From: Volvariella volvacea V23
Lineage: Eukaryota; Basidiomycota; Agaricomycetes; Agaricales; Pluteaceae
Length of the DNA: 64,000 nt
NCBI GenBank assembly: GCA_000349905.1
Contig: KB722736.1
Span: forward strand, 3,631,057-3,695,056
Direction of reading: 5' to 3'
Shown: one piece after another, positions 17,691 through 28,449 of the stretch
Layout: the number at the start of each line of letters is the position of its first letter
Position numbering within the stretch: the stretch's first letter is position 1
Program-made: the position numbers and the translations under genes
The notes under the pieces: generated by a model
What the model was told of the DNA's origin: nothing
Seen by the model: the letters and a program-made list of their open reading frames with translations, nothing else
Databases searched by the model: none

Positions 17691-18176
17691 CTAACCGCTG
17701 ATAACTCCTTCATTCTTCTTTTCTAGAGTCTCGAGAGCCTGTTTAGCGGCCAGCTCTTTAGCTTCATTCTTCTTTGATGCTACACCTACCCCCGCTAACT
17801 CCCCATCGACTGTAAATGTAGCGGGAAGTTATGTTCAGGATCAACTCCGTTAGCCAGATTCCTAGTCCATTTTCAACTTACTTTTAATCACACAGTGCCA
17901 CTTGGGTTTATTGTCCTTTCCCTCTTTCTCGTATTCATCGTGAATCTTCTCGAACATTTTTCTACTCTTAAAGATATGAAGTTGATGCCAATACTCTGCG
18001 AATAAATGATTAGTGTCAATTCTCAAGCCCAGGAAGAGTGGAGCATCATACACCGTACCCGGTTTTTTGGCCTTTTGGTTTGTTGTCCGTTCAGCCGGTC
18101 CAGCCTCTGTAGTTTCGGCTGCAGGACCTATAGGACCTTCAGCTGAGTTATTCGTGAGGTGTTCCGGTGATTGCAT
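17691..18176 (-). CDS. Stand-alone double-stranded RNA-binding domain protein, copy 1
   Basis: Exons 18059-18176, 17882-17995 and 17691-17809 join in phase to 116 residues. After a 39-residue low-complexity leader comes one dsRBD: alpha1 EYWHQLHIF, a central beta sheet with WHCVIKIDGE, and alpha2 SKKNEAKELAAKQALETL, which carries the lysine-rich helix start that contacts the RNA backbone. No second domain is present. Both introns are phase 1 and fall exactly before EYWH and before DGE, as in copies 2 and 3. A TATATAG box lies about 55 bp upstream. Family knowledge supports dsRNA binding; the biological role (RNA silencing, antiviral response, regulation of an enzyme partner) is open. Confidence 0.85.
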
Positions 18177-19267
18177 GATTGATTCAAGGCTTTGGATTCA
18201 ACACTGATGCCCTCACCAGCTCTAATACTATATACTCAGTGGATCCTGTCGAGGATCAATATTTTTTGGAATGTCGAAAAAAACTCTTATGATTGCATTG
18301 GGGTTCCTCCCGTCCGCAGGTGCTAGAGCTGACCGGGAGCGGTAAACAGGATGACTTCAAGTTTCCACGAACTACTCGGCTTTGCCGATACTGACCTCAT
18401 GCCTTTTGAAGGCGTATCGGTAAGTCTCGTGGCCCACGTAGGGAAGTGCGGAAGGAGCTTCAAGTGCCTTAGCAGTGGTCCGTGGGTAGGTTCGCTCTCG
18501 ATGTGAAGAAATCTTGGACTTCCCGTCGATCCTGTCTTGCTTCCAGAGGCAAGAACCGGCTATGTTATATTCAGCGCGTCGCTTTTGACCTTAGATAGTA
18601 TGCCGATTACCCTCACGAACTATGCAATAACGGCTACCTGGAATATTGAACACACTGCGACCAAGTTAAGGTGTGTCTGCAGGTCCGGCGCAAGAGCATT
18701 AACAGGACAGAAACCCCCCTCGATAGTCAGAAGGTCCCATAGAGTATCTGGGTTCCTTGCATTTAAGATTTTTCGTGAAATCCACAGTTGAGAGAGTGGA
18801 AGGGAGACGGTTTCTATATACCTCCTGGCGACTCATCAGTCTTGCACTCCATCATTCATGCATCCTCATAGTGGCCTGGAGTGGTAGCACTCTCGAGCAA
18901 GTTGAAAGTCATCTCAATGACATGATTAGTAGGAGACTTGGTGAACATAGCGCAACACAACGGTATGTAAAATTCCCCTTCATGTGTCATCTATCCGCAT
19001 CTTACGCTTGGCTTGGAGTACGGCTTTTCACACCCACCATACCATTCAATAGGGAGGTAGCTACTAGAAATTAGAACGACGCCGCTGGCTATAAACACAG
19101 AGTCTTGACACGTCGTAGCAGGTCACTGGAGTTCAAAAGACAGAAGACAGACAAGCGTATGTCAGGAAAACAGTTTACAAAGCCTATTAATTGATATACT
19201 TTTACACATCGTGCATTAGTCATGCTCTACACAACACGACCCACAAATGATCCAGTGTATACTCCTT
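18177..19267. repeat. Intergenic part of a tandem segmental duplication (block A)
   Basis: No gene is seen. Sub-blocks at about 18229-18310, 18501-18590 and 18639-18690 match, in the same order and with substitutions and gaps, 19646-19725, 19936-20010 and 20153-20203 upstream of copy 2. With the coding parts, the duplicated unit spans roughly 17.7-18.7 and 19.3-20.2 kb. Shared landmarks include a TATATA box next to atcctgtcgag, and an acttcccgt...atcctgtcttg element. Confidence 0.75.
18228..18234 (-). promoter_or_regulatory. TATA-like box of dsRBD copy 1
   Basis: TATATAG on the minus strand, about 55 bp upstream of the copy-1 ATG, is conserved at the matching position upstream of copy 2 (19646-19652). 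Confidence 0.5.
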
Positions 19268-19600
19268 TCAGGTAGCATTCAGACTCTCTAGAGCTTTCAA
19301 GGCAGCTAGTTCCCTGGCAGCCTTCTTCGCTGATGCCTGTCCCATCCCTTTGAGTTCTCCGTCAACTATACGAACGCGGCAAGGCTGCAGTCAGTACCAG
19401 TCGACATATTTCTTCCCCATTTAACTCACTCGAAATCTTGCAGGTCCATATTGTTGCGTTCTGCGGTCCGCTTTGGACGAAATCATCATCGACTATGTAG
19501 CCGTCTCTGTTCCCCAAGTTTTTTAGTTCGTGCCAATATTCTACGAATTGACGACGCTGTCAGTAAAACCCCAGAAGGTCTAAGAAGGCATACCACGCAT
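19268..19600 (-). CDS. Stand-alone double-stranded RNA-binding domain protein, copy 2
   Basis: Exons 19594-19600 (7 nt), 19430-19540 and 19268-19365 join to 71 residues that are almost exactly one dsRBD. The order is alpha1 EYWHELKNL, the GPQN turn, WTCKISIDGE strands, then GMGQASAKKAARELAALKAL, the canonical RNA-contacting helix. The start ATG-CGT is chosen because it lies about 50 bp downstream of a TATATAG box and gives the only phase that joins to EYWH. Upstream ATGs fall too close to the TATA box and in a wrong phase. Intron positions and phases equal those of copies 1 and 3. Function beyond dsRNA binding is unknown. Confidence 0.85.
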
Positions 19601-20831
19601 GGTTTCCACGAGTTCTTTGAGTCATCACTTGCGCCGTCATGTGCACTATATATTCGATGGAATCCTGTCGAGACTTAACACTTTTGGAATATCGCAAAAC
19701 TTCTCATGGCTCCATCGGGGTCTTTGCTCTCCTTCTGCGCTACCCACCAGCATCAGGATCGCAAACCTCAACAGGATTAGGGTACCGCCGTCGTAAGACA
19801 CCCAGAGATCCCGATCCCGACCGTTAAACTTCACTGAGGGTCGGTCAACTCTTGTATCCAATGTGGAAAGGTGAGCAGAGGTGCTGAAGCATTGGAGTTG
19901 CACCTCAGGAATGGAGCGGGAAGGCACGTCCAACGTGTGGAATAGCATGGCACTTCCCGTTATCCTGTCTTGTATAGGTGATAGCCTATGCTATATTCGA
20001 CATGTCCCTTAAATTCAACGCGTAGCACTCCCACAATTCTCGCAGGCGCTTATATAGCCAAGAAGTAAGTGATACTATCAGGAAGTATCCAGACAGGTGG
20101 AATTACGTTGATCTTACCTCGCTGGCAGTATTCGTCAATCCCGATAGCAGAGGGGTATTCAATTCCGCTGCATCCAAGCTAAGGTATTCCTGCATGTCCT
20201 ATACAATTGAGCTGGGACTACAGGAAAAATTCCCCCGATAACCAGCAATCTCACAACGGTGTGTAGACCGGGGAAAGCCCTCTACCCAGGCTCAGCCATG
20301 AGGCTATACGTCCCTAGAAATTCAAAGCGACTCCATAGCGTTCGGTGGATATATCGGCCTCTCAAAGTTGCAGTTCTGATAGAAGGAGACCGCTAGGTCA
20401 CCTGGACGTTGTCTATCCCCATCGCAACCAATAGGCAACAGCTACTCGTGAAGTCCGTTGTACTTACTGGCTCATGGACTGAGCTCGGATGTCGGGAGTG
20501 ATTCATGCTGTTGCACCTGTGCACCCTCCGACCTCGGGGTTTTTATCGGGACGAACGCCACGGCATTCGTTCCAGGGACTCGCGAAATACGCGTTCAAGG
20601 CCACGAGGCGGGTGACATCTTGAGCTCTTGAGTCTCACGTGAATATTGTACTTCCAGCATCAGACACAATTTCTGTCCACAAATGCGCTCATTCGCCTCC
20701 ATGCAAGACATTCTGGCAATACATCCTAACAACACTTGCGCGCATTCACCAAATTATCAACGAGATGAAGTGTACAATGGCTCGCAAGCTCAAGCACCTT
20801 CTTGAGCCTCCTGGACTCCCTAGCTCTCCCC
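19601..20831. repeat. Intergenic part of a tandem segmental duplication (block B)
   Basis: This is the counterpart of block A (see 18177-19267). Matching sub-blocks lie at about 19646-19725, 19936-20010 and 20153-20203. No additional gene is visible in 20.2-20.83 kb. Confidence 0.7.
19646..19652 (-). promoter_or_regulatory. TATA-like box of dsRBD copy 2
   Basis: TATATAG on the minus strand, about 50 bp upstream of the chosen ATG, sits inside the segment shared with copy 1. Confidence 0.5.
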
Positions 20832-21165
20832 CTAATTCAATTGGTCCAAAGCCTGCTTGCTAGCCAAGTTCCTAGCTGCCTTCTTTGTGGACGCTTGTCC
20901 TCCCCCCCTAATTTCACCATTGACTACCAATTTCAGTCAGACTATCTACCAGCTCAAGTCAGAAAAAAGAACGCACTATAGATCCGGGCCTCCCAAAGTT
21001 GATTGTTTTGCGGACCGTTTGGTTCACATTGACACGATAGTTCAAAGCCGTCTCTGTCTTTCCTCAGATTCAACTCGTGCCAGTACTCTGTAAAAAAAAG
21101 TATGAGAACGGGTCAGGACTCGACGCTTGCGAGCAGAAGCACTACGAACCTCCATTACCAGCCAT
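20832..21165 (-). CDS. Stand-alone double-stranded RNA-binding domain protein, copy 3
   Basis: Exons 21150-21165 (16 nt, coding MAGNG plus one base), 20977-21087 and 20832-20923 give 72 residues. A single dsRBD is seen: EYWHELNLRKDRDG, GPQNN, WEARIYINGE, GGGQASTKKAARNLASKQAL. Both introns are phase 1 and lie before EYWH and before NGE, identical in position to copies 1 and 2. Exon 2 has the same length (111 nt) as in copy 2. The upstream region lacks the block shared by copies 1 and 2, so this is the older or more rearranged duplicate. A run of seven G in the coding strand is a potential slippage site but is in frame. Confidence 0.85.
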
Positions 21166-24708: not shown

Positions 24709-24780
24709 TCCCTCTTAGCTCAGTTGGTAGAGCGCGTCACTAGTAATGACGAGGTCAGTCGTTCGAGTCGGCTAGAGGGA
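24709..24780 (+). tRNA. tRNA-Thr (anticodon AGT), intronless
   Basis: The 72-nt sequence folds as a complete cloverleaf. It has acceptor stem TCCCTCT/AGAGGGA, D-stem GCTC/GAGC, anticodon stem CGTCA/TGACG with loop CTAGTAA, and T-arm AGTCG-TTCGAGT-CGGCT. The anticodon AGT reads threonine codons (wobble A to inosine). A TTTT Pol III terminator follows at 24785-24788. Confidence 0.95.
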
Positions 24781-25707
24781 ATTCTTTTACCACTTTCACC
24801 GTACGCCCCATAATTTTTTCTTCATAAAATTACGATTAGTTCCAATTGTATAATTACAAATTTACTATGAGATAAAGCATATATCTTGCGTATCAAGTAG
24901 ACAGAAGACAAAAAAAGGTGGGGGGTAGTAATTGATAGTGTTAATAGATAAGTGGAGGAAGTGACATACTGTATTACAAACAAATAAAAGGGGCAGGGCA
25001 ATGCACCAAGGTAATTCCGCAAAAAATGAGAGCGGGACCCGTCGTGAAACCAAACTGGTAAAGACAAATGGACAGGTCCAGTACCGAACAAGAATTGCAT
25101 ACCCAACAACGGCTTAAAAATGGGAGCAGAAAATTCAAAAAAGTTGCGCTGTTGGCTGGTCAATAGGAGGGGTGCGCATGCGAAGGAATTACTAGTTGAA
25201 GTTGGAATTGATAAAGAAGAGATGCATAGAAGACAGGTCAATGTCAGACACAAACACAAAGAGGGTAAAGTACGAAAAAAACCGTCAAAAAGTAGTAAGG
25301 CCATCGGTTGATTATAATCAAACTTCTTGTAGGCGTAATGGGTGTTTAGGGTGTGCAAAGTAGTAAATTTGGTCCATTGAAATGATAATGCGGGCAGGGA
25401 GGTGTGCTGTGTCGTGTCATGGTAGAGTAATATGGCGTGTGCATAGTGTTACATTATGTTGATTTGTTTAACTATTCGTCGTTGTTGAAGTCGAGCATCC
25501 ATGACCAAATTGCTGTTGATGAATTCCAAGAGTCGATATGATGCAGTGCAGAGAGGGGTTAGGAGGAGAGATCCAATGGCGGGCTTGTGCCTTGCTGGTA
25601 TGATGACTGGTTCGCGCGAGACATAGGATCAACAGAACGCCAAGGGGAGGACAGCAGGCAACACCAACAGCCCGCAAATCACCAACCCGAGCCCTAAAGG
25701 CACGCAA
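24781..25707. other. Intergenic, 3' flank of the next minus-strand gene
   Basis: AT-rich. Frames here (e.g. plus strand 25120-25311) have no recognisable domain and are probably chance. Confidence 0.5.
24785..24788 (+). terminator. RNA polymerase III T-run terminator
   Basis: Four T residues begin five bases after the 3' end of the tRNA-Thr gene, the usual Pol III stop. Confidence 0.6.
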
Positions 25708-28449
25708 CTACGAGTCAGCAGCACCGGAGGCACCAGCACCCCAGACGTTCGGTAAACCCAACCTGCTGCCCCTTCCCGTCGCACTTCTCCCACTCCCAGA
25801 TTTATTATTCTTCCCACTGGCAGTTTTCATGATACGCATCTGGCCTTCCTCGCTATCTTCGTCCACTTCATCGTGATTCTGACTCTGCTGACGGTCATAT
25901 GCACTCCTTTGAATCATGCCCCGCCTGACCCAACCCTGGATCCTATCTGTACCCGCATCCTCCCGCTCACGATCCGAGGTTACTCTTCGCGACACATGCG
26001 CAGAACTCCGTAGTCTTTCAGCATTTATGCTACTAGCCGCACGTATCAGGCTTACACTCGCCCTCGACGAGATAGCCCTCGAACCTAGCCCATCCAACTC
26101 ACTGTCTTCCTCCTGCACGATATCCCGCGCCGGAGTTACAGGGGCGGCCGACGGTACATGTAAGTGCTTCCTCAAGCTCTTGATAGAGTTTTGTCGTTTA
26201 GGTGGCACTAGAATCTTCGCCAGGTCAGGCTCTCCATCATCCGACTCGTCCTCGTCCTCCTCATCTCCATCCTCTTCATCACCACGATCACCCAAATCAT
26301 CCCCCTGGTCCGCACTGTCTGCACCTTTCGGGCCAGGGGATAGCCCTGTCGTGCCCCATCCGCCCAAATAAGGTTCTGCGTATTCTGACTGGACCTTCCT
26401 TCGCCCTCTCTCCCGCTCCCACTGTTCCTTGTCGCCACCTCCCTTTCTCGCTTTCGTCCACGCATCACCTTGGGCTTTAGTCTTCGCCAAAGTCGGCACC
26501 TGTGGCTCATGGTCCCTCGTCCGTCTTCTGCCCCTAACTCTCCCGACCACGGCGCTAAAGCCACTCTCTTCACCGCCCTGGTGCCTCCCGCCGCCACCAC
26601 CACGAACCCGTGATCCAGCTCGACTCGCAGGGGCACTCCTGCACACGACTTGCATCATGACAACCTCTCCTTCGCTCCTGCCCGACCTTCCCCGTCCAAT
26701 CCTCGCGAACAACTCGGGTGGGGCAAGGAATTGAGAATTACGAATCGTGACATCCGTATTGCTCTGGTCCGAAAGCCGACTCGTCACGCTCCTCCCATCA
26801 CTTACCACCAACGATGTGACGCTCTGCCTGGGTAACCTTGCCCGGGTAAGATCTCGATACGAGTTGACTTGTGAGATCGAGCTCCTTGTCTGTCTAAGCA
26901 CGCGGTCTTTCTGACTTGAGATGTAAGAATGATTAAGCGGTGAAGGATCTGGATGCTGAGCTTGAAAATAATGTTGCGTGGGCCTCGAGCTTTGATAATT
27001 AGGATCCTGATTGTAGCGGTGGTGTCCGGTACTACTACTTGACTGTATAGGACCTGTTGTATGTGCACCTGCGCCACCAAACAAAACGGCCTTGGCCACA
27101 CTTTCAAGCCATTTCTTCGGCAACGGCGGCTGCACCGATCTCGTGGTATCATCTTCGCCTTCTCCACTACCCCTTTTACGGTACAAAACCTCCGGGCTCT
27201 CCGAATCACTATCATTCAACAACATCGTCCTCCGGGACGAGGTGAACCTCTGCTGGGCAGGAGTTGAGTTTGGGCGATGAATACTCGGAGCGGATGCCAT
27301 ATGCCGGAGATATGCCCTAGCCCGGGAGGGAGGAAAGACGGGCGAAGGTGGAGGAAATTGCGGGTAATTACCAGGTCGTACGGGTGTGGGGGATTGTATT
27401 AGGAGCTGGTTCTGCCGGTCCGTCGAATTCTGGGATGATCGACGTTGGAGAGATGGAAGATGTTCGATAGAAGCTGATGGGAACGGAGGAGGTGGTGGGG
27501 GTGGCATATACCGAGTTTGGGTAGAGTGTCTATGGACTAATCCCGGACGGGCTGATTGCGGCTGAGTTTGGTGCCGGATATTCGAGAACTGCGGGTGATA
27601 TGTCTCCATGAAATTCTGGGAATAATGAACGGGAGTTTGCGCTCGCGATGAAGGTAACTGATAGCTCGCGCGGGGTGTCGGTTGAATGGCTTCAATGGAG
27701 TTGGTAATCGTCATTAGTGTCGGCGTGAGAGAACCTTCGCTACCTTGATCCTTGTGAGAGTGTCTATGCGCCAATGGCGATACAGGCGGCGAGTACGAGT
27801 CTGACATGAGCGGAGGCGACGGCGGCGGCGGCGCATGCATCCCTTGACCTATCGTGCCTTGCGTTTGTAACCCCTTATTACTCGAAGAGGAGTGCATGAG
27901 CCCGGCCAAAAAGCCCACTACGGCCCCCATGCCACCTCTCGCGCTGCCCTTACCCTCCTTCTTTTCTTTATTCTCTCCATCGCCCCGCTCACCCTCGGGC
28001 GTGAAGACCCTTGTTTCTTTGTATCCTGCCTCGCGCAATAGATCCTCCAGACGCTCATACGTCTTTGACGTGCCTCTTCGATGGAGAGGAACACGTCCCA
28101 GATCCGGAGGATAGCGATTGCGCGACCGGCTCGGTCGTGGAGGAGTAGTAGGCTGAGGCGGGGATCCCGATGAATTCGAGTTGGACGTCGATTGCGTGAG
28201 GGTCGGCGACGAATGCGAGGGCGAAAGAGACGTCTGCTTCCTATTGTAGCTTGCCTGGCATTCCACAAATCGAACAGTCAGTGGTTGGGACATGGACAAT
28301 CACACGAGAACCAAGCAAGCGTCTCGCAGTAAAGGCAAAGGGATCGCTGCGTTCCGATTCGGCTGTGAAATGACTAAACACACCTTGTCGTAGATGGCAC
28401 GCACGCTAGCACCATCGTCATCCCGTGCGACCTCGCTTTGGTCCGCCAT
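25708..28449 (-). CDS. Large intrinsically disordered protein of unknown function
   Basis: Exon 1 (28384-28449, coding MADQSEVARDDDGASVRAIYDK less the last residues) joins in phase 0 through a 129-nt intron to exon 2 (25708-28254), giving 870 residues. This start is preferred over the internal ATG because it leads with a good context and the splice joins YDK to ASYNRKQ. The protein is rich in Ser, Pro, Arg and Gln, with a short ordered-looking segment near residue 80 (TYERLEDLLREAGYKET), a proline-rich PPPPPPP patch, Arg/Gly stretches and an acidic run (DEEDGDEEDEDESDD). No catalytic domain is recognised. It may be a scaffold or nucleic-acid-associated protein. Further unspotted in-frame introns are possible. 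Confidence 0.7.

What the first reader, a model, noticed from the sequence alone, without database searches (positions are those of the whole stretch)
17691..21165. Tandem family of three stand-alone dsRNA-binding-domain proteins
Three same-strand genes encode proteins of 116, 71 and 72 residues that are little more than one dsRBD each. Both introns are phase 1 and fall at identical domain positions in all three. dsRBDs usually sit in larger enzymes (Dicer, RNase III, ADAR); naked single-domain copies expanding in tandem suggest a distinct role. Possibilities are binding or masking dsRNA of mycoviruses or transposons, or acting as cofactor or antagonist of RNA silencing. This is the best candidate for an undescribed system here.
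Basis: partly seen in the sequence, partly recalled or inferred. Interest (0 to 1): 0.75.

Follow-up and report, generated by a model that had tools for sequence, protein, structure and literature searches.

The report
Tandem trio of one-domain dsRNA-binding proteins
A mushroom-type fungus carries three neighbouring, long-conserved genes that each make little more than a single double-stranded-RNA-binding domain; two share control motifs seen nowhere else in its genome, and they are probably small helpers or blockers of dsRNA processing, though that role is untested.

Summary
Three minus-strand genes at 17691-21165 encode 116, 71 and 72 residues, each with one dsRNA-binding domain (Pfam dsrm over its cut-off in 3 of 3). 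Both introns of each gene are phase 1 and fall at the same domain positions. Five of 6 introns carry a branch-point motif (shuffles p = 0.0002). The copies are old (45-50% amino-acid identity, third codon positions 33-42% identical) and under purifying selection (2dlnL 14-32 against omega = 1), so they are unlikely to be pseudogenes. New here: genes 1 and 2 share upstream DNA, including two motifs whose exact forms occur only twice in the 35-Mb genome, before these genes. Of 12 dsrm matches in the genome, 3 are this trio and 9 lie, by my reading, in RNase III-type, Dicer-like or helicase genes. Four RNase III-like genes have an intron at the same codon and phase, which suggests common descent; the tree does not support it. 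Most likely these are minimal dsRNA-binding accessory or competitor proteins acting beside RNase III/Dicer enzymes. Binding and direction of effect are untested.

The parts
17691..18176 (-). Gene 1 (c1): exons 18176-18059, 17995-17882, 17809-17691; 116 aa; 39-residue N-terminal tail plus one dsRBD
   Evidence: dsrm 42.4 bits, E 1.1e-10
17996..18058 (-). Gene 1 intron 1, 63 nt, phase 1, branch-point motif CTAAT; can also be read through in frame
17810..17881 (-). Gene 1 intron 2, 72 nt, phase 1; the one intron without a CTRAY motif in the range tested
19268..19600 (-). Gene 2 (c2): exons 19600-19594 (7 nt), 19540-19430, 19365-19268; 71 aa, one dsRBD
   Evidence: dsrm 33.6 bits, E 6e-8
19541..19593 (-). 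Gene 2 intron 1, 53 nt, phase 1, CTGAC branch-point motif
19366..19429 (-). Gene 2 intron 2, 64 nt, phase 1, CTGAC branch-point motif
20832..21165 (-). Gene 3 (c3): exons 21165-21150 (16 nt), 21087-20977, 20923-20832; 72 aa, one dsRBD
   Evidence: dsrm 39.4 bits, E 9.2e-10
21088..21149 (-). Gene 3 intron 1, 62 nt, phase 1, CTGAC branch-point motif
20924..20976 (-). Gene 3 intron 2, 53 nt, phase 1, CTGAC branch-point motif
18227..18304 (-). Upstream block of gene 1 shared with gene 2 (proximal GACAGGAT box at 18243-18250 and a TATATAG sequence); likely core promoter
   Evidence: local score 53, highest of 300 shuffles 27; exact motif twice in the genome, reversed control 0
19645..19721 (-). Upstream block of gene 2 shared with gene 1 (GACAGGAT box at 19662-19669 and TATATAG)
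18518..18538 (-). Distal upstream motif of gene 1 (AAGACAGGATN{1,2}ACGGGAAGT), about 350 nt before the ATG
   Evidence: exactly 2 exact copies in the genome, reversed control 0
19952..19971 (-). Distal upstream motif of gene 2, about 360 nt before the ATG

Best explanation
Three real, anciently duplicated genes each make a minimal dsRNA-binding protein: one dsRBD and little else. Shown here: the gene structures (by sequence signals), the domain (by profile match), purifying selection among the copies, and shared upstream motifs for genes 1 and 2 that have no other exact copy in the genome. Inferred: the domain descends from the dsRBD of an RNase III-type protein, still folds as alpha-beta-beta-beta-alpha, and binds A-form dsRNA mainly through the kept lysine/arginine patch at the start of helix 2. 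Inferred further: having no catalytic domain, the proteins work by occupying dsRNA, or by pairing with the fungus's RNase III-like and Dicer proteins, and so tune which dsRNAs (transposon, antisense or viral) reach those enzymes. Genes 1 and 2 are probably switched on together. My estimates: real genes 0.9, dsRNA binding 0.65, a role in RNase III/RNAi processing 0.35.
For: Domain. Gene models. Purifying selection: codon-position identities (first 53-64%, second 67-70%, third 33-42%); 2dlnL of 14.1, 31.6 and 25.6 against omega = 1. Shared upstream DNA of genes 1 and 2. Kinship to RNase III-type dsRBDs: profile comparison with four RNase III-like dsRBDs, probability 96.2%, E 2.5e-9 over 56 columns; RNase III gene L001 is the best match outside the cluster for genes 2 and 3; intron 2 matches the intron of L002, L019, L020 and L024 in codon position and phase. 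RNAi-type genes present: RNase III 6 matching stretches, Piwi 18, RdRP 17 (stretches, not gene counts). The helix-2 patch (KKAAR in genes 2 and 3, KNEAK in gene 1) is read from the alignment; its role is recalled.
Against: The middle dsRNA contact (GPxH of typical dsRBDs, recalled) reads GPQN in genes 2 and 3 and GKDN in gene 1. Pfam matches start at profile position 15-21, so helix 1 is weakly conserved. The proteins are not basic overall: pI 7.0, 5.7 and 6.6. Against the RNase III origin: in the tree a supported branch (96/99) sets the trio together with helicase L003 apart from all 24 RNase III-type rows, though with long branches and 16 of 25 inner branches unresolved; L001 lacks the shared intron; gene 1's best match outside the cluster is an unrelated-looking stretch at E 0.08, with L001 at E 0.2. 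A profile of the three scores RNase III dsRBDs (L001 35.7 bits, L002 26.5, L024 25.3) no better than PKR (37 bits over two domains). No expression or binding data. No homologue was found in other species, so conservation across species is unseen.
Confidence: 0.4

Rival explanations
1. The domains have become protein-protein modules: they no longer bind RNA and instead dimerise with other dsRBD proteins (the RNase III-like proteins or Dicers).
For: GPxH is absent in all three, helix 1 matches the profile poorly and net charge is near zero or slightly negative. That dsRBDs might serve protein contacts is raised for R3B2 (passage seen).
Against: The helix-2 basic patch is kept in all three. The RNase III orthologues in the alignment also lack GPxH at that place, so its absence alone is a weak sign.
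Confidence: 0.25
2. They are antagonists of RNA silencing: dsRNA shields like viral dsRBD suppressors, perhaps captured from a virus or a mobile element.
For: 340R of an insect iridovirus, which contains a canonical dsRBD, blocks Dicer-2 processing of long dsRNA and siRNA loading (abstract and passages). The genome keeps RNAi-type genes to antagonise.
Against: No relative confirmed in the viral collection. Spliced genes under purifying selection with profile and intron kinship to fungal RNase III-like dsRBDs favour a cellular origin.
Confidence: 0.15
3. They are broken-off or decaying fragments of RNase III-like genes, kept by chance.
For: Kin of RNase III-like dsRBDs by profile and intron position.
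Against: omega = 1 is rejected in all three pairs. Three intact frames with splice signals and conserved upstream motifs for two. None of the 6 RNase III matches in the genome lies in the window.
Confidence: 0.07
4. The three copies are exons of one larger multi-dsRBD gene.
For: Same strand, 1.1-1.2 kb apart.
Against: Each has its own ATG, stop and the same first-exon intron; genes 1 and 2 each have their own upstream copy of the same motifs.
Confidence: 0.03

Closest known systems
Class 1 RNase III of Agaricomycetes (own genome: L001; 416 database relatives, 120 listed)
   Same: C-terminal dsRBD with a KKAAR-type helix-2 start; best outside match of genes 2 and 3
   Different: The trio has no RNase III domain; L001 has no intron at the intron-2 position
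RNase III-like proteins with changed catalytic motif in this genome (L002, L019, L020, L024)
   Same: dsRBD profile match and the same phase-1 intron position
   Different: They keep a degenerate RNase III-like part and an intact GPxH loop; the trio has neither
Mucor R3B2 (non-canonical RNAi; listing and passages)
   Same: Fungal dsRBD protein in RNA silencing and degradation
   Different: R3B2 has an RNase III-like domain and two dsRBDs; no sequence comparison was made
Dictyostelium RbdA and RbdB (abstract and passages)
   Same: A single dsRBD and no other defined domain; RbdB is essential for miRNA processing
   Different: 297 and 733 residues against 71-116; homology beyond the domain not tested
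Insect iridovirus 340R (abstract and passages)
   Same: A dsRBD protein that binds dsRNA
   Different: Viral; no sequence comparison made
Short dsRBD-only ('DRBM domain') proteins of other Agaricomycetes (recalled, from no call)
   Same: Would be the same kind if confirmed
   Different: Not found, which only reach relatives sharing exact 5-residue words

Membership tests
dsRNA-binding domain (Pfam PF00035) | Score over the curated cut-off | tested here: met
   3 of 3 proteins: 42.4, 33.6 and 39.4 bits against 23
dsRNA-binding domain (Pfam PF00035) | alpha-beta-beta-beta-alpha fold | tested here: inconclusive
   Alignment to solved PKR domain 1 (E 0.001 for that domain) implies it.
dsRNA-binding domain (Pfam PF00035) | Helix-2 basic patch (KKxAK/R; recalled) | tested here: met
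   KKAAR in genes 2 and 3; KNEAK in gene 1, one lysine fewer
dsRNA-binding domain (Pfam PF00035) | GPxH loop (recalled) | tested here: not met
   GPQN in genes 2 and 3, GKDN in gene 1
Class 1 RNase III | RNase III domain with catalytic motif | tested here: not met
   No PF00636 or PF14622 in the three proteins; none of the 6 genome matches lies in the window
R2D2/HYL1/DRB-type Dicer partner | Two or more dsRBDs (recalled) | tested here: not met
   One dsRBD per protein
R2D2/HYL1/DRB-type Dicer partner | Binds a Dicer | not testable with these tools
   Needs an interaction assay
Viral silencing suppressor | Viral relatives | tested here: not met
   33 pattern stretches in viral contigs, 0 confirmed; short patterns limit sensitivity
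Viral silencing suppressor | Blocks silencing | not testable with these tools
   Needs a reporter assay

The most novel reading that the evidence does not exclude
A dedicated set of minimal dsRNA-binding proteins, two of them co-regulated, freed from an RNase III-like ancestor and kept for a long time in tandem, forms a non-enzymatic layer over the fungus's RNase III-like, Dicer, RdRP and Argonaute proteins: each copy buffers or hands over a different class of dsRNA, as small dsRBD partners do in animals and plants but with one domain only.
Probability: 0.2. Interest if true: 0.65.

Novelty: new member of a known kind. Interest (0 to 1): 0.42.

Why it matters
My ten literature searches showed, judged by their listings, no paper on single-dsRBD accessory proteins in mushroom-forming fungi (open-licence PMC papers only; searches had no hits; some searches listed only part of theirs: 20 of 26, 15 of 244, 8 of 12, 8 of 11). 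If these proteins bind dsRNA they would be very small complete dsRBD proteins and a ready test of whether fungi use non-enzymatic dsRBD helpers, as animals and plants do. They may also be missed by gene finders, because two start with exons of 7 and 16 nt.

Tried and rejected
Recent tandem expansion: rejected, since third codon positions match at only 33-42% and dS is saturated in most pairs. Pseudogenes and exons of one gene: see rivals. More copies: searches of the genome with all three proteins at E <= 10 and of the window gave no fourth stand-alone copy; these genome searches read exon by exon and score only the best candidates. A second dsRBD family (PF24995) found one weak stretch, gene 1 itself. 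Gene 3 sharing the upstream region: rejected (scores 19 and 18 against null means of 20). 3' flanks: scores 22-26, null maximum 29, so no similarity shown. Upstream block as a dispersed repeat: the 383-base query found only itself, but that search also missed gene 2's 75%-identical copy, so the motif searches carry the point, and those allow no mismatch, so near copies elsewhere are not excluded. Homologues in other species: no candidate; 325 candidates, none with E <= 10; 33 and 86 pattern stretches, none confirmed. The control for the protein database is: 416 RNase III relatives, many of the 120 listed being named Agaricomycetes, best identity 64% at full coverage (70-71% for a few over about half the length); so the database holds such fungi but probably no very close relative of this one, and the lack of hits shows only that no close homologue is annotated. 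Tree: 28 rows, made of 19 of the 120 listed database proteins, 6 own-genome dsRBDs and the trio; P0061 was cut badly and L003 and gene 1 are long branches; the trio was not one clade in the best tree (12% of bootstraps) and a supported branch keeps it, with L003, apart from the RNase III rows. NG86 and YN00 gave no dS and were replaced by a maximum-likelihood fit, in which two of three pairs are saturated and give no usable omega value. The global upstream alignment (277 of 371 columns) has no shuffled control and is illustration only. Alignment A3 was made and not used.
Full report
What is there. On the minus strand, three small genes lie at 18176-17691, 19600-19268 and 21165-20832. Spliced as the sequence signals suggest, they encode 116, 71 and 72 residues. 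In all three the first intron falls just before EYWH(E/Q)L (splitting the E codon) and the second just before (D/N)GE (splitting the I codon), both in phase 1, with all introns 53-72 nt and GT-AG. For genes 2 and 3 the open frame upstream of EYWHEL ends at a stop with no ATG between, so a spliced short first exon is needed. The start of gene 2 (ACCATGCG at 19600) lies opposite the start of gene 1 when their upstream regions are aligned (no shuffled control).

Are the introns real? In 5 of 6 a CTRAY branch-point motif lies 8-38 nt before the acceptor; shuffled introns give 0.70 of 6 on average and reach 5 in 0.0002 of 20,000 trials. Intron 2 of gene 1 is the one without. Intron 1 of gene 1 has no in-frame stop, so retention would give a 137-residue protein.

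Is the domain real? Pfam dsrm is over its cut-off in 3 of 3. The matched part begins at profile positions 15-21, so helix 1 is weak. A profile of the three finds PKR first in the PDB at E = 3e-8 over its two domains (first domain alone E 0.001, aligned from helix 1 to helix 2), among 15 distinct sequences at E <= 0.01, whose names (PKR, DRB2, DRB3, DGCR8, TARBP2, RNase 3, RDE-4, RNA helicase A, E3) are all of proteins I know to carry dsRBDs. The basic patch at the start of helix 2 is kept; the GPxH loop is not (residue roles recalled).

Is it under selection? Pairwise amino-acid identity over the domain is 45-50%, with identity by codon position of 53-64%, 67-70% and 33-42%. In a codon model omega = 1 is rejected in each of 3 pairs (2dlnL 14.1, 31.6, 25.6); omega is 0.21 for genes 1-2 and not estimable for the two saturated pairs. 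The copies are old and behave as protein-coding genes.

Upstream regions. Genes 1 and 2 share about 80 bp at 75% identity, ending in TATATAG (local score 53, highest of 300 shuffles 27). Gene 3 does not share it. Two motifs drawn from the shared region each have exactly two exact copies in the 35.4-Mb genome, one before gene 1 and one before gene 2, with no match to the reversed control. The octamer GACAGGAT, read on the minus strand, occurs six times in the window, four of them in these two regions, at 67 and 353 nt (gene 1) and 62 and 362 nt (gene 2) before the ATG; it never occurs on the plus strand. Because third codon positions of the same genes are near random, this upstream conservation points to kept control elements. 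The motifs were chosen from the alignment, so their pairing before genes 1 and 2 is expected; the new fact is that no other exact copy exists.

Kinship. Of 12 dsrm matches in the genome at E <= 10, 3 are the trio (gene 2 below the cut-off there, because the search reads exon by exon). The other 9 lie in or beside larger genes by my reading: five RNase III-type genes (L001, L002, L019, L020, L024), a DEAH-type helicase with two matches (L003, L023), an RNase III-domain gene I take to be mitochondrial ribosomal protein mL44 (L021; recalled), and a weak match (E 0.8, L025) in an 818-residue frame that I take to be the one carrying a Dicer-like RNase III match. The closest outside match of genes 2 and 3 is L001 (E 2.7e-5 and 8.5e-6); gene 1 has none better than E 0.08. 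The profile comparison with the dsRBDs of L002, L019, L020 and L024 gives probability 96.2%, E 2.5e-9, over 56 columns without gaps. Those four genes have an intron at the same codon and phase as intron 2 of the trio; L001 does not. About 66 codons by 3 phases makes chance agreement roughly 1 in 200 per intron (my estimate). Against this, the tree keeps the trio and L003 apart from the RNase III rows by a supported branch, with long branches and little resolution, and a profile of the trio scores the RNase III dsRBDs (L001 35.7 bits) no better than PKR.

Setting. The genome has RNase III, Piwi and RdRP matches in number (6, 18 and 17 stretches). Other genes of the window are ordinary: ABC transporter, RING finger, cyclin, FAD-binding protein, Mlh1 C-terminus, MOR2-PAG1. 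The best named database relatives of L001 are from Agaricales (by recalled taxonomy) at about 60-62% identity, so the fungus is probably in or near Agaricales; I could not name it.

What it probably does. The simplest reading is small proteins that bind dsRNA non-catalytically and so guide or limit RNase III/Dicer access. Cofactor or competitor cannot be told from sequence. A protein-contact role is the main rival because GPxH is absent and net charge is about zero.

Literature. I saw passages, not whole papers, of PMC4894637, PMC4231766, PMC4395119 and PMC7827160, and listings of the rest. Proteins whose only defined domain is one dsRBD are known in Dictyostelium, so the kind is known; what is new is a tandem set of such minimal proteins in a mushroom-type fungus, as far as my searches go. 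I recall that short 'DRBM domain' proteins are annotated in other Agaricomycetes, but no call shows it.

Verdict. Observation confirmed; interpretation partly supported; ordinary domain, unusual format, function open.

Noticed in passing
L002 (G000 C7:496297), L019 (C23:300906), L020 (C28:151788), L024 (C7:242164): At least four RNase III-like genes with a C-terminal dsRBD and a degenerate RNase III part. By eye, the D of the LGD signature (recalled) reads R, W, E and E; a D-to-E change of that kind is described for Mucor R3B2 (passage). A basidiomycete counterpart of a non-canonical RNAi pathway would be worth testing.
   Followed up: partly
window 17996-18058: Intron 1 of gene 1 is a multiple of three with no stop, so retention could give a 137-residue protein.
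   Followed up: partly
window 18518-18538, 18243-18250, 19952-19971, 19662-19669: Paired GACAGGAT boxes 286 and 300 nt apart before genes 1 and 2; the longer forms have no other exact copy in the genome. A possible binding site of an unknown regulator.
   Followed up: yes
G000 C5:1862992-1864339 and other Piwi and RdRP matches: Many Argonaute and RdRP stretches, some with stops inside the match; not resolved into introns or pseudogenes.
   Followed up: no
window 24709-24781 +: A tRNA gene (Rfam 61.6 bits).
   Followed up: no
window 25711-28299 -: An 863-residue open frame with no Pfam match at E <= 0.001.
   Followed up: no
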